Source of the DNA: Sphaerosporella brunnea
Taxonomy: Eukaryota; Ascomycota; Pezizomycetes; Pezizales; Pyronemataceae
DNA length: 64,000 nt
Assembly (NCBI GenBank): GCA_008704415.1
Contig: VXIS01000088.1
Coordinates: 82,783-146,782, forward strand
Direction: 5' to 3'
The notes under the pieces were generated by a model, which ran no database searches, was not told where the DNA came from, and was given only the letters and a program-made list of their open reading frames with translations. This document shows positions 30,547-48,999 of this stretch, piece after piece; the first letter of the stretch is position 1; each line of letters opens with the position of its first letter. Position numbers and translations under genes: made by a program.

Positions 30547-32344
30547 TTAGATAGGCAGAGGGAAGGTGGAGGCCCACTCGGCGATCTCCTTCTTGAGGAC
30601 CTGAACCTCAGGGACACCCTGGGTGACCTTGGCCTTGAAGTCCTTGAGCTTGTTGGCCTCCTTAGGAAGCTCGCTCTGGATCTTCAAGCACAGGTTGATG
30701 CAGGTGTCAATGTAGCCGGCAACACGGCGGAAGTCGTCTTCACCGAAACCACGGGTGGTAGCGGCAGGAGTACCAATACGGATACCGCAGGGGGTGAGGG
30801 CACTCTTGTCGCCAGGGATGGCGTTCTTGTTGCAAGAAATGTTGGCAGCCTCGAGAACAGCCTCGACACGGGCACCGTCGAGCCCCTTGTCGCGGAGGTT
30901 GAGCAGAACCATGTGCGAGTCGGTACCGTCGGATACGAGCTTGTAGCCCAGGCGCTTGAACTCGATTTCGAGAGCCTTGGCATTGGCAACAACCTGCTGC
31001 TGGTACTGCTTGAACTCGGGAGTCATGGTCTGCTTCAGAGCCACGGAGAGGGCAGTGATGGTGTGGTTGTGGGGTCCACCCTGGTGACCGGGGAAGACGC
31101 TGTTTGCAAGTCAGCAAACATTGCAGCTAAAAATGCATGATGGAGAAAGCGGTCAAAAGATTCAAGATCAGAAGGAAGGCAACGGAAAATATCTACACGG
31201 AGTTTTGCGCATTCGGTAGAAATGATTTACATCCGAAAATGTTTCATCATGTGAATCGTAGACAAAGTGTAACGCTGAACAGGGAATTGTCTTCACATAC
31301 CTGAAGTTGATCGGGTTCTCAAGATCGTACATGGTCTTGTTGCCCTTGGCATCGACCTTGCGGACACCACGGCGGAAGAAGATCATGGCGCCACGGGGTC
31401 CACGGAGGGACTTGTGGGTGGTAGTGGTGACAATGTCAGCGTACTCGAAGGGGCTCTTGATAACACCAGCGGCGACCAGGCCGGAAATGTGGGCCATGTC
31501 GACCATGAGGTAGGCACCAACGGAGTCGGCAATCTCGCGCATGCGCTTGTAGTCGATCTCACGGCAATAGGCGGAGGTACCGGCAACAAGGACCTTGGGA
31601 CGATAAAGGATGGCGTTCTTGGCCAGGGTATCGTAGTCAATGATGCCGGTCTCCTCGTTGACGCGGTAAGGCATGGTCTCAAAGTAAGTAGAGACGGCAG
31701 AGATCCTAATTGCTAGTCAGGAAAGGCCAATCGAGGCACTTTCTGGGGATTGAACTGACTTCTTCTGGGGAGTCTGGTACCCGTGAGACAAGTGACCACC
31801 GTGGGGCAGGTCAAGACCCATCAGGCGCTCGTGAGGGCGCATGATGGCCTGGTAGACCTGGAGGTTGGCAGGAGATCCAGAGAGGCACTGGACGTTGACA
31901 CCCCACTTGTCGGGAGTGACACCGAAAGCGGCGAGAGCACGCTCCTGGCACAGAGTCTCGACAGCGTCGATGTGCTCGTTACCACCGTAGTAACGAGCGC
32001 CGGGGTATCCCTCAGAGTACTTGTTGGACATGACAGATCCGAGTGCGTCGTACACGGAGCGAGAGGTGATGTTCTCGGAGGCGATCAGAGGAATGTTCTC
32101 CCGTTGACGCTTGATCTCGCGTTGCTGTGCTGCGATTAACAATGGTCGTGGAGGAGGACGCTGGTTTTTCCTTGAAGGATCTAATTTTTAAAAAAATAAA
32201 ACATACCACGAGCTCATAGATCTCCGGGTCAGACTCCTGCAGAGACTTCTCAAGCATCTACATGCCGTGAGTCAATCAGTTCGCACCAACAAAGAATATG
32301 AGCAAACCGACTTCCTTGTGGGACTGGGGGAGAGCGTAAGTCAT
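30547..32344 (-). CDS. Serine hydroxymethyltransferase, cytosolic type
   Basis: The start [11 protein letters not shown] is at 32344. There are five exons, with introns near 32311-32258, 32210-32133, 31760-31706 and 31304-31101; the last is about 200 nt. The enzyme interconverts serine and glycine with tetrahydrofolate and uses PLP. Visible signatures: [14 protein letters not shown], the [18 protein letters not shown] block, the [11 protein letters not shown] strand, [14 protein letters not shown], and the PLP-lysine motif [15 protein letters not shown]. Near the end are [15 protein letters not shown] and [11 protein letters not shown]. No mitochondrial presequence is present, so the cytosolic isoform (yeast SHM2, Neurospora 'for') is most likely. 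Length is about 470 residues, normal for the family. The third-codon GC/C bias in the exons suggests high expression. Confidence 0.95.
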
Positions 32345-32850
32345 TGTTGCGGATTGTTGCAGGTGAATTGATTGATACAAGCAACGGAAGGGTATAAGAT
32401 GTGGGGGGTGGGAAAGAAGGGGAGGGACAGGTTCTCAGATGAGGGGAGTCTCGGGGCAGAGTTTTTGTAGTGTCGATGGCGGGGTCCCACAACAAGAGCT
32501 CAAAAAAGTTTTTCTCTCGCCTAGCTCAGATCCTGGGCTCCCCGCTGACTCCGCTCCGATGGTACTGTCTACCGGCGGGGCAGCGACAGATACATTGTAC
32601 TAGTCAAGTCCGCAGAATTTTGCAGTGATTGATCAGCTGGATAACGGCCCCACACGCTTCCGTCAACAGCCATCACTCGGGGCGCTTGCGGGCAAAGTTC
32701 CAGACCAAAAGACCGCCACAAAGAGGCCAAGCACTGCAAACGGCAAGCCGGGCAGACAAACATTGAGGTCAAGGGGGACATGCAGAGAATCCGCGAGCTG
32801 CATCAAATAGCCACAATGACATTGCTCATGCCATCCAGTAATACTGCATA
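32345..32850. promoter_or_regulatory. Upstream region of SHMT
   Basis: No gene. The 150 bp before the ATG is purine-rich on the plus strand, so pyrimidine-rich on the coding strand, as usual for a highly expressed fungal promoter. Beyond about 32560 I see nothing before the MITE at 32851. Confidence 0.35.
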
Positions 32851-32962
32851 AACTCGCAAGCAAGAGACTGGGCTAAGTCACTGCGCCATGTAGGCTTAGT
32901 GACTTTGCCACATGGCGCAGTGACTTAGCCAGTGACGTAGCCCAGTCTCTTGCTTGCGAGTT
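32851..32962. mobile_element. MITE family A, copy 1 (112-bp palindrome)
   Basis: The ends AACTCGCAAGCAAGAGACTG are an exact inverted pair, with TA on both sides (32849-32850 and 32963-32964). Inside, a second palindrome is built on GTCACTG/CAGTGAC and CGCCATGT. About 75 bp of the centre are identical to the copy at 46321-46436. The whole unit would fold into a long hairpin as RNA or extruded DNA. The right TA is also the left TA of the next element. Confidence 0.9.
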
Positions 32963-32964
32963 TA

Positions 32965-33175
32965 CTATCGCGTGGCCCCCAATGTCGTTTTTTCCCCAGT
33001 GTCGCGCTGAAAAGTACGCCGGCTGGCTCAGAAATACGCATGGCAACGGGCAACGTTTCTGAGTGGTGGTTGCTACGCGAGGTCCCCGCCAAAGCTGCCC
33101 GCGTATTTCTCAGCCAGCCAGCGTACTTTTCAGCGCGACACTGGGGAGAAAACGACATTGGGGGCCACGCGATAG
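32965..33175. mobile_element. MITE family B, copy 1 (211 bp, 75-bp arms)
   Basis: The arms 32965-33039 and 33101-33175 are inverted with only a few mismatches and start CTATCGCGTGGCC. TA flanks both ends (32963-32964 and 33176-33177). A second copy lies at 37844-38061. No coding capacity. It abuts MITE A with a single TA between them. Confidence 0.92.
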
Positions 33176-33177
33176 TA

Positions 33178-33708
33178 TGCGGTAAGCCTCAATTGAGTAA
33201 ATTTTGATTCAATTGGCGATCTGCCCGTTAGTGTCAGAGACCCCCCTAGGTGATACATAAAAGTACAAATTTTTTCGCCTAAACCCCTGTTTTTGGCTGT
33301 TTTACACCAAAAATGCCCCATATTCGAGCAATAACTCCACCACATCACAGCGGGAAATTTTGGTTGGGCATTGAAGTGATAGACAAATCCATAGAATCTC
33401 AATAATTGTGGTGACATTGTGAAAATCGGGCGTTGTGGTGGAGTGAGGAGCTGGATTCGTCACGTCCCCATACAAAATCTCGTGTTTTCGAGCTCCCAAC
33501 CACCTCCCAGCTCATTGCACCTTCAGATTTTGAAAAATTTGAGCGCCCTTTCAGGAGGAAAAATTTCAGATAATTTCCAAGCTCGTCCTCAAAGGCTGAG
33601 TTTTTAGAACCAGAGGAAGGTGTTTGGGTAGCTACTTTGGCTGTAAAACGGCAAAGTAACGAATCTTTTTGTCCCTTGACTGTGATATGTTCCAAAAGTA
33701 CCCCGCCC

Positions 33709-33886: not shown

Positions 33887-35309
<1,423 letters not shown>

Positions 35310-37487: not shown

Positions 37488-37578
37488 GGTTGGTTCGGGT
37501 TGCGACGCTTTAGAGTGGGGAGGAACTGGCTGAGCTTGTTGGCGTCCGCGCACAACGCGAAAAAAAGTTTATGGTTAC

Positions 37579-37841
37579 TCACGCGGCCGGAATCATTGAA
37601 CATCACGTGCCGCACAGGGTTGGGGTTATATTTTTCACGTGTGTGGGGTTGCGGCGGAGCCAGGCCACAACGGCTGATTTTTGGAGGGCTTATTTTCGCG
37701 TATCCTACTACATCAATTTGAATCAAATCGGTCGCGCCGTTGTTGAGATAATGGGGGGGGTATCGAGCGGGGTGCTTTCGGGTAGAAAATATAACCCCAA
37801 CCCTGCGGGCACGTGATGTGCGATGATTCCGGCCGCGTGAG
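37579..37841. mobile_element. MITE family C, 263 bp
   Basis: Inverted arms of about 55-58 bp start CTCACGCGGCCGGAATCAT. The reverse complement of the right end begins CTCACGCGGCCGGAATCAT as well. TA flanks both ends (37577-37578 and 37842-37843). CACGTG occurs three times (37605, 37636 and 37810). The element starts only about 90 bp upstream of the RPA34 start codon. No coding capacity. Confidence 0.9.
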
Positions 37842-37843
37842 TA

Positions 37844-38061
37844 CTATCGCGTTGCCACCTACCAGGTATGTCGTCTTTTCACCTATGTCGCGCTGAAAAG
37901 TACGCTGGCTGGCTCAGAAATACGCATGGCAACGGGCGGCCTTGCGGGGTGGTGGTTGCGGCGCCAGATCCTCGCCAGAGCTGCCCGCGTATTTCTGAGC
38001 CAGCCAGCGTACTTTTCAGCGCGACATTGGTGAAAAGACGACATAGGCGGCAACGCGATAG
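37844..38061. mobile_element. MITE family B, copy 2 (218 bp)
   Basis: The CTATCGCG ends and TA flanks (37842-37843 and 38062-38063) are like copy 1 at 32965. Long parts of the arms are near-identical to copy 1 (GTCGCGCTGAAAAGTACGC, GGCTGGCTCAGAAATACGC). It follows MITE C with just one TA between, so the two elements fill most of the RPA34-DBP8 intergenic region. Confidence 0.92.
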
Positions 38062-46313: not shown

Positions 46314-46320
46314 TACCGTA

Positions 46321-46436
46321 AAAACTCGAGAGCAAGAGAATGGGCTAAGTCACTGCGCCATGTAGGCTTAGTGACTTTGCCACATGGCGCAGTGACTTAG
46401 CCAGTGACGTAGCCCATTCTCTTGCTGTCGAGTTTT
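46321..46436. mobile_element. MITE family A, copy 2 (~116 bp)
   Basis: The ends AAAACTCGAGAGCAAGAG pair with the right end; TA at 46319-46320 and 46437-46438. About 75 bp of the centre are identical to copy 1 at 32851-32962. The flanks CCGTA / TACGG are themselves palindromic, so an outer boundary at 46316-46441 is also possible. Confidence 0.88.
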
Positions 46437-46813
46437 TACGGTAATGGTCATAATGGTTAGTAGCAAAATAGTTGTGTTGCTCATTAACCATCACCCACCC
46501 TTATACGGGAGAGAGGGTTTTGGTTTAAAGAGCATTATGTTGACCGTTTTGTGGCCGAAATGTTGATAGCAAAATCACGATTATATAATGGCCACATGAC
46601 GATTTTCAAAAACACCCCTCCCCTGCTAAGGTATGTATGTAACTATGGTGGCGGGATCCTGTAACCTGCCCTCGGGGTCCACTTCTCTTGCTGATCAACT
46701 AAACCTATTTCAGCAAAATCAAGTGATAGACTGTGTATCCACTCGTGGGAAAAGAGGCGGGGTGCTTCACTAGAAATCACTCGTGATCCCAAAACAGGAA
46801 AGTGTACCGCATA

Positions 46814-46894
46814 AACAAGAGACTGGGCTAAGTCACTGCGCCATGTAGGCTTAGTGACACATGAGAAATCACTTGCCCCAGTCTGAAAGAAGTT
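46814..46894. mobile_element. MITE family A, copy 3 (internally deleted, ~81 bp)
   Basis: The left half (CAAGAGACTGGGCTAAGTCA through CTTAGTGAC) is identical to copy 1 after a small deletion near the end. The right half is reduced and diverged (CCCAGTCTGAAAG). TA flanks at 46812-46813 and 46895-46896. Confidence 0.7.
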
Positions 46895-48999
46895 TAGTAG
46901 GTTCACTCCAACCCTGAACCCCTAACCCTCCGAAAAATTCCCGCTTGAAACACCCGCTACTGCTCCTTACCCTTCCATCTATTGCTACTTATCTACGCAT
47001 CTAGAGAGCGCTTTTGCGTTATTTTTTGGTGTTTCCAACGGCGATGGGAGGGATTCCGCCACCATTAGGTAGTAGAGCTAATTAGTAAGAAGATGTAATA
47101 ATTACTAATAGTCTGACGATGTTCAAACTTTGAGGGTATCGTACGCCCGACGCCTCACCGACTATCACTCAGGAATCCGAGATACTCTCACAGCTTCATA
47201 TCGTGCTCGTGTAAAATAGCTTTAGACTAGAGGACGTTAACGGGTTTGCGGACAAGTGTAGGAGCATGCCATTGATCACGAGACGACGCAAGTGCTGAAC
47301 CATCGAAACGGCCGGCTCTTGCGGGCTACCAAGAACCCTTCATACTCCGGTGTAACACCACTCTGTTTCCGTCTTGTTAACGTTGCTACGCAGGGCTAGA
47401 ATTGCGTGCTGTATGGGCCCTCAAGCTGTTTATTCAGCTTTACAAGCGTAGCGAGCTCATCTCGGGCGAAGTCGTGCCGAAAACCATTTCGAGATCATAC
47501 ATAGCACATAGTAAACTCGTAGATACAGCAGCATCAAATCGTAGGCAGCTCGAGCGGCGTTGCTAGTGATGCGAGGCGATGCTGGTGTAGGTGATGGCAC
47601 TGTGCAATATCACCGAGAATTCGCCAATCACCAGCCCTCACACGACAGCGCCCCGCACCGGTACTAGTACAGTGCCGCCTGTCTACGTACTCTGCACACT
47701 TCTCATAGATGCCGAGTGGGAACATGTATGTATGTACATACACGTGGCGGGTACCATGCTGCTGATCCGTCATGTGCGATCACCGCGTTTCGTTGGCTAT
47801 CCCGTTCCATATCTTATCGATCGCAGCAGAAGTATAGTATCACACACACCCCTCTCGCTGCGCGTGCTTATCGATTGGTTCGCGGGGGTTCACTGTCGCG
47901 TGTCTCTCGCCTGGACTCTCTGCATCAGGGATCGCTGTCCCGACGATCCGACACGAAAGCGGCAGTAGCGCTGCATCAGGGAACAGCCCCGCGCCGCCTA
48001 TTGGCTGGCGCTGGGCTCGGCAGTTTTGGTGTGATTATGTCGTCTCTGGGGAGGAAGCAAACGCCACGGAACCTTCTATCGATGTTCTTTTACAGGCACG
48101 GAAGGGGAGGGGGGCTTGATACGCGATTGTCGCAGAGCTGAAACTATGTACGGCGAAGGGGGAGCGGTGGAGAGCGCGCTCTCTCTGTTTGTTTACGTAG
48201 GAGAGAGATATCGCTGCGGTGGGCGAGGGGGCAACGAGGAGATAAGCTGAGGAGGAGGAGGAGGAGAAGGAGGAGGAGGAGGAGGCATGAACATGAGGAG
48301 GCCAACCCCCATTTCATTTCAAACTAAGTACTTTGTTCAACCCCCTCCCCCCGTCACTGCAAACAACCTAACCCTTCCGATCGCGAACTCCTCACCTCTT
48401 ACTCACTTCACTCACTTACACTCACTCCACCTCACTTCTCCTCTTCCTCCTCACCGCCGCCCCTCGACCCCGTTCCCCCGTCGACCCTCTGTTGCAACCA
48501 TGCGCTTGCCACGGGTATCGTTCTGAAGCCGCGGTTGGTATGCATTGAATTGATTGCATGTCAAATTGATTGATCTTCCCTATCGCCGAACAGGAGCAAT
48601 TGGCATCTAGACCAACTCCTCCAGCTGCAGATCAAAACGGGCGCCATAGGAACTCGCAAACCCGATCAGAGACAAACCCTCCGGCTACGAGTTTCCGACA
48701 TACTCGTTCCATTTTCTTGTCCTCCCATCCCATTCAAACTTGTCGCCCGCCACCGCGCATCGAAGGGTTCATATCCGCTTTATCGCCAGCTCAGCTCGCA
48801 ACCGAGAAAAGGAAAAATAAAATAAAATAAATCCTGCCTCCCCAGAGCAGCAGCAGCACAAAAAAAAAAAACAAAAAAACGCAGCAGCCGAAGCACATAA
48901 CCGGGGTCGCGTCAAAACAAGTTCCCGGCTCGTCGCTCTGTACGTGGGGCTGCATAAGGCGTACAGCGTACATACATAATAACAGTGTCCTAAACAGCC
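46895..48999. other. Intergenic region upstream of LST7
   Basis: No gene seen over about 2.1 kb. It holds a GGA/GGAGAA purine tract at about 48250-48286 and a CACTCAC/CTCC-rich leader (48390-48480) that looks like a transcription start region. The ATG at 48499 opens only an eight-codon frame ending at a stop and could be an upstream ORF of LST7. Confidence 0.4.

What the first reader, a model, noticed from the sequence alone, without database searches (positions are those of the whole stretch)
32849..33177. Two unrelated palindromic MITEs joined end to end through one shared TA
MITE A (32851-32962) ends at the TA 32963-32964, and that same TA is the left flank of MITE B (32965-33175). Each element has its own TA at the far side. 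Insertion of B exactly at the TA duplication of A is the simplest reading. For a TA-targeting transposase a random hit on this one TA is unlikely, and it is repeated elsewhere in the window.
Basis: partly seen in the sequence, partly recalled or inferred. Interest (0 to 1): 0.75.

Follow-up and report, generated by a model that had tools for sequence, protein, structure and literature searches.

The report
Small transposon nested in another's end
In a genome that is probably a cup fungus, one small mobile DNA element has jumped into the last few bases of another, and its family sits at the ends of other such elements more often than chance would give.

Summary
Both elements are real, repeated, palindromic, TA-flanked MITEs in a 50.6-Mb genome, probably a Pezizales fungus. 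The end-to-end reading is wrong for this site. Family A's true ends are [TA]CCGCATAAACTC...GAGTTTATGCGG[TA]; in the window A's last 5 bp and TA lie beyond B (33178-33184). B (32965-33175) is nested in A's right terminal inverted repeat, at a TA 7 bp from A's end counted with its flanking TA. Uninterrupted A ends are abundant. A second A copy (C608) carries a B of another subfamily at the mirror-image TA of the other TIR, so the pair is not one composite.

Placement is not random: 12 of 34 long-flank B copies have their target TA within 10 bp of an inverted-repeat element's outer end, against 1.4% of window TAs and 3.1% of TAs in the same loci; a further 8 copies gave none. A Tc1/mariner-like element sits 3 bp inside a B end. 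By a second, BLAST-based measure A and B abut repeats equally often, so a B-specific preference is unproven. Nested MITEs are known; whether targeting or tolerance causes the bias is open.

The parts
32842..32843 (.). left TA target-site duplication of MITE A
   Evidence: sequence; most of the A copies laid out show [TA]CCGCAT at this place
32844..32962 (.). MITE A, main part (CTGCATAAACTC...GCGAGTT), interrupted by B shortly before its right end
   Evidence: empty-site form is 130 bp with its two TAs
32963..32964 (.). TA internal to A's right TIR = left copy of B's target-site duplication
32965..33175 (.). MITE B, 211 bp, TIR CTATCGCGTGGCCCCC..., 77-nt arms counted with the TAs (96% complementary)
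   Evidence: 100% identical to L002 and 99.5% to L003-L006
33176..33177 (.). right copy of B's TA target-site duplication
33178..33182 (.). last 5 bp of MITE A (TGCGG), cut off by B
   Evidence: same sequence follows GAGTTTA in uninterrupted A copies
33183..33184 (.). right TA target-site duplication of MITE A
37576..37843 (.). MITE C with its TAs (TACTCACGCGG...CCGCGTGAGTA), a separate family, 54 first-look candidates in the genome (40 scored)
37844..38061 (.). second B copy (GTTGCCAC subfamily), joined to the true end of C through the single TA 37842-37843
   Evidence: 17 of 40 scored places, this one included, match C over its whole length 1-268
46314..46443 (.). intact A-variant (A', TACCGTAAAAACTCG...) with no B, an uninterrupted relative in the same window

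Best explanation
A and B are non-autonomous cut-and-paste elements (MITEs) that duplicate a TA. A inserted first, in the spacer between the SHMT gene and the VPS4-type AAA gene. Later a young B copy inserted at the TA 7 bp inside A's right TIR (counted with A's flanking TA), leaving A's last 5 bp on the far side (shown by sequence and by paralogous uninterrupted copies). B repeatedly lands in or at the outer few bp of other TA-flanked inverted-repeat elements. Probably this is because such termini hold several TAs and lie in DNA where insertions are tolerated, with perhaps some added preference of the transposase for such sites (inferred; the share of each is not resolved).
For: True A ends and the missing A tail beyond B. 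Joined flanks align across the site to an uninterrupted A copy, L044 (95.7%, 138 bp); the uninterrupted end GCGAGTTTATGCGGTA has 194+206 hits at <=2 mismatches against 25+17 for the reversed pattern. The exact junction GCGAGTTTACTATCGC occurs at 2 places, window and C608, in opposite TIRs and with different B subfamilies. 12 of 34 long-flank B copies have the TA within 10 bp of an inverted-repeat outer end, against 38 of 2645 window TAs and 105 of 3433 TAs in the B loci; binomial 2e-10 against the latter, 3e-9 with the 0 of 8 further copies added. B in family A: 4 of 53, or 6 with A'-ended elements, expected 0.05 for 200 copies of A and 0.11 for an assumed 500. Of 14 B copies inside or at such elements 11 are terminal, 4.35 expected from where the TAs lie, p 3e-4. 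A 2.34-kb Tc1/mariner-like element (587-aa frame, DDE_3) sits at the inner TA, 3 bp from the end, of a B copy on C33.
Against: Nothing found speaks against the nesting. Against a preference special to B: a repeat match ends within 4 bp of the target TA for 20 of 53 B sites and 9 of 25 A sites, no difference (Fisher 1.0; both counts contain some self-locus and neighbour artefacts). Of the A copies judged by the inverted-repeat test 2 of 23 are positive, one of the two being the B copy itself; B against A is p 0.03 (12/34) or 0.11 (12/42) with 2/23, and 0.009 or 0.02 with 1/23. The 34 long-flank copies partly come from a query that held A, which favours A neighbours; of 22 copies with an exact B terminus, 20 were testable and 5 of them are terminal hits (my tally). 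The 8 further copies gave none; 11 copies kept flanks too short to show longer neighbours. One of the 11 terminal hits (L017) is a weak 20-bp inverted repeat without TA ends. B's transposase was not found.
Confidence: 0.9

Rival explanations
1. End-to-end join: A ends at TA 32963-32964 and B used A's target-site duplication.
For: The 112-bp core of A ending in TA is what the window shows left of B. True end-to-end joins do exist elsewhere: C|TA|B in this window, A'|TA|B in L024, A|TA|B in L066.
Against: 43 of 58 sides of the 29 A copies laid out continue exactly TATGCGGTA, 6 more with one change, and that sequence stands on the far side of B.
Confidence: 0.03
2. A+B moves as one composite element.
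For: The same junction at a second place, C608.
Against: Opposite TIRs; B copies only 86.1% identical beside A copies 98% identical; different outer flanks; the closest relatives of each nested B include copies not beside A.
Confidence: 0.03
3. No targeting: B inserts at any TA, and MITE clusters arise because insertions survive only in gene-free, repeat-rich spacers, where MITE ends also happen to be rich in TA.
For: Ends of the 11 families listed carry 1-4 TAs in the first 20 bp; TAs elsewhere in the B loci are already twice as often at inverted-repeat ends as window TAs; at 40 non-MITE targets only a G/C next to the TA is favoured (0.72 against 0.50) and no palindrome is seen; by BLAST, A and B abut repeats equally often, 9/25 and 20/53.
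Against: Excess of about 12-fold over TAs of the same loci for the 34 long-flank copies, 9-fold with the 8 further copies; 6 hits in A/A'-ended elements against 0.05-0.11 expected; terminal bias inside hit elements beyond their TA distribution.
Confidence: 0.5

Closest known systems
Stowaway-like / Tc1-mariner MITEs with nested and clustered insertions (carrot DcSto, PMC3695323, passages seen; Jiang & Wessler 2001 on maize and rice, known only through that citation, not held)
   Same: short elements with TIRs, TA duplication, nested insertion of one family in another, independent insertions at or very near the same position
   Different: A and B ends are not the Stowaway consensus (recalled); fungal host; here hits concentrate within 10 bp of the ends
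Clustered pineapple Ac-mMITEs (PMC8449440, passages seen)
   Same: independent adjacent insertions of MITEs linked by TA
   Different: those lie in (TA)n microsatellites and are Mutator-related and non-nested; here single TAs inside or at MITE ends
Bacterial IS30, which targets inverted-repeat ends (recalled, no call)
   Same: element preferring terminal inverted repeats as target
   Different: different transposase class and target duplication; only an analogy

Membership tests
MITE (non-autonomous TIR element) | short, TIR-bounded, no coding capacity, many near-identical copies | tested here: met
   A 126 bp and B 211 bp between TAs; inverted arms; many copies. The window ORFs of 80 aa or more that overlap B are 85 and 95 aa
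TA-duplicating (Tc1/mariner-type) elements | TA target-site duplication | tested here: met
   TA on both sides of 51 of the 53 B copies listed (TG on one side in L096, CA in L020), and of most A copies listed
Tc1/mariner superfamily | mobilised by a Tc1/mariner DDE transposase with matching TIRs | tested here: inconclusive
   DDE_1 and DDE_3 matches are plentiful (83 and 86), but only one such locus was read (L127), and its element has unrelated TIRs
Stowaway | conserved CTCCCTCC-type TIR end (recalled) | tested here: not met
   A starts CCGCATAAAC, B starts CTATCGCG

The most novel reading that the evidence does not exclude
B's transposase actively prefers TAs at the ends of other inverted-repeat elements, for example through end-bound transposase or extruded hairpin bases, so one MITE family parasitises the termini of others. 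By splitting a TIR it should immobilise its host element.
Probability: 0.2. Interest if true: 0.6.

Novelty: new member of a known kind. Interest (0 to 1): 0.32.

Why it matters
It corrects an apparent end-to-end join to a nested insertion and gives the order of events. If the terminus bias is real targeting, the families here (A, A', B, C, D and an element with a transposase gene) offer a compact natural data set for asking how a TA-specific transposase chooses among about two million TAs (estimate), and how MITEs disable each other by splitting TIRs.

Tried and rejected
Palindromic target as the cue: no excess of complementary positions around the 40 non-MITE B targets. Composite A+B element: rejected. 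C+B as one composite: suspected because the window and C1 B copies are 98% identical and sisters in the tree; but the C1 copy of C is only 88% identical to the window's, while 6 other C copies are 97-98% identical to it, so independent insertions are likelier. On C1 the B end next to C lacks about 15 bp (sequence printed), so that junction is not between two intact ends. Autonomous partner of B: PF03184 gave 83 and PF13358 gave 86 matches. I followed only C33, where the transposase proved to belong to a different element inserted in B; other contigs holding both a match and a B terminus were not followed.

Paper searches that ran: (55 for the host). Nested and clustered MITEs are described there; I saw no description of insertion biased to the first bases of a TIR, and one search returned 0 papers. 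This is no proof of absence. These were seen as listings, except passages of PMC3695323, PMC9970103, PMC2997013 and PMC8449440.

Rows dropped: one search lists 33 candidate A copies with 3 edge hits; I dropped by eye non-A or duplicate rows and those not from the A query, leaving 23 with 2 edge hits (L038, L057), and the hit of L038 is the neighbouring B itself. The 12 of 34 accepts any inverted repeat; by the best repeat 11 are terminal and 3 interior.

Full report
What was checked. The window is part of contig C628 of an unnamed 50,565,648-bp, 640-contig genome. A VPS4-type exon of the window is 88% identical to Trichophaea hybrida and 86% to Pyronema domesticum, the best named hits, and Pfam matches SHMT, an AAA ATPase with a MIT domain and a protein kinase in four ORFs tested, so the host is very probably a Pezizales fungus. 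The finding lies between SHMT (ORFs matched at 30547-31674) and the AAA gene (34306-35133).

True boundaries. Of 30 A copies fetched with the A sequence alone, 29 were laid out. One search finds the uninterrupted end GCGAGTTTATGCGGTA 194+206 times at up to 2 mismatches, 25+17 for the reversed pattern. In the window the left end reads TA-CTGCATAAACTC from 32842, and the tail TA-TGCGG-TA stands at 33176-33184, right of B. Joining the flanks gives a 130-bp element of the usual form, which aligns across the join to the uninterrupted copy L044 (95.7%), a copy with the same CTGCA variant. B is therefore nested in A's right TIR.

Independence. The junction GCGAGTTTACTATCGC occurs exactly twice, window and C608; the other 15 listed places have 2 mismatches, against 8+12 for the reversed control, so they are at noise level. 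In C608 B lies in the left TIR of A (A in the same orientation as the window's), with a different B subfamily (86.1% to the window B; nearest relative 96.8%). The window B is 100% identical to L002 and 99.5% to four more, so it is young.

How general. 53 B copies were distinct by their flanks among the loci held. Four lie in family A: window and C608 at 7 bp, L066 at the end TA (its B is recognised by its termini only and is 402 bp long), L097 at 32 bp. Two more lie in elements with A' ends: L024 at the end TA and L029 in the interior. Chance would give 0.05 for 200 copies of A and 0.11 for an assumed 500. A pattern search lists one more possible A|TA|B end join, on C629, not read. Other hosts are D (L008 at 8 bp; L027, where A and D are joined through one TA and B sits 5 bp inside D), C, and the elements of L006, L019, L020 and L076, the last hit in its interior. 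Within 10 bp of an inverted-repeat end: 12 of 34 long-flank copies, against 38 of 2645 window TAs and 105 of 3433 TAs elsewhere in those loci; 0 of 8 in an extended set mostly of another subfamily; 11 copies not testable for longer neighbours. By the best inverted repeat, 11 of 14 such sites are terminal, 4.35 expected. L007 and L022 also have B at the same boundary of a further repeat without a detected inverted repeat.

The second window site. C (37576-37843) has 54 first-look candidates, 40 scored; 17 of the 40, the window's included, match over the whole length 1-268. C|TA|B in the window is therefore a true end-to-end join. On C1 a C copy only 88% identical to the window's also stands beside a B that is 98% identical to the window's second B, but that B lacks about 15 bp of the end next to C.

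A third layer. On C33 a B copy is itself interrupted, 3 bp from its end, by a 2.34-kb element with 73-bp perfect TIRs, TA duplications and a 587-aa open frame matching DDE_3. B's tail G-TA stands on the far side.

Controls and limits. A copies judged by the inverted-repeat test have 2 of 23 at inverted-repeat ends (rows chosen as told), one of them only because of the neighbouring B. B against A is p 0.03 or 0.11 with 2/23, and 0.009 or 0.02 with 1/23, for 12/34 and 12/42. A second measure disagrees: repeat matches ending within 4 bp of the target TA are found for 20 of 53 B sites and 9 of 25 A sites, no difference. MITE clustering is thus general in this genome, and a preference special to B is not shown. 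At 40 non-MITE targets the sequence preference is weak, G or C next to the TA.

Conclusion. Nesting is shown, and the order of events follows from it. Non-random placement of B at MITE ends is well supported against TA controls. Its cause, targeting or tolerance, is inferred and open. Nested and clustered MITEs, and independent insertions at or near the same place, are already described (PMC3695323, passages; PMC8449440, passages).

Noticed in passing
L127 (C33:69961-74460), about 233-2574: A 2.34-kb Tc1/mariner-like transposon with perfect 73-bp TIRs and an uninterrupted 587-aa DDE_3 frame, inserted 3 bp inside the end of a B MITE.
   Followed up: partly
L027 (C278): MITE A and MITE D are joined truly end to end through one TA (ATGCGG-TA-CCGTATTATC), and a B copy sits 5 bp inside D.
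   Followed up: partly
families A, A', D and the element of L076: Four MITE families share the terminal motif TACCG(C/T)A, which may mean one transposase family for all of them.
   Followed up: no
window 46805-46900: A decayed A copy (starts TACCGCATAAACAAGAG) about 360 bp from an intact A' copy (46314-46443).
   Followed up: no
L007, L022, L054, L105: A repeat starting TACACCACCGACGAGTAGCC with B at its end TA in two loci (L007, L022) and A inserted 15 bp inside it in a third (L054); no inverted repeat was detected at those B sites.
   Followed up: partly
C105/C419 and C83 (two places), C101 (two places): B or A copies with matching flanks at two places, pointing to recent segmental duplication or duplicated assembly.
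   Followed up: no
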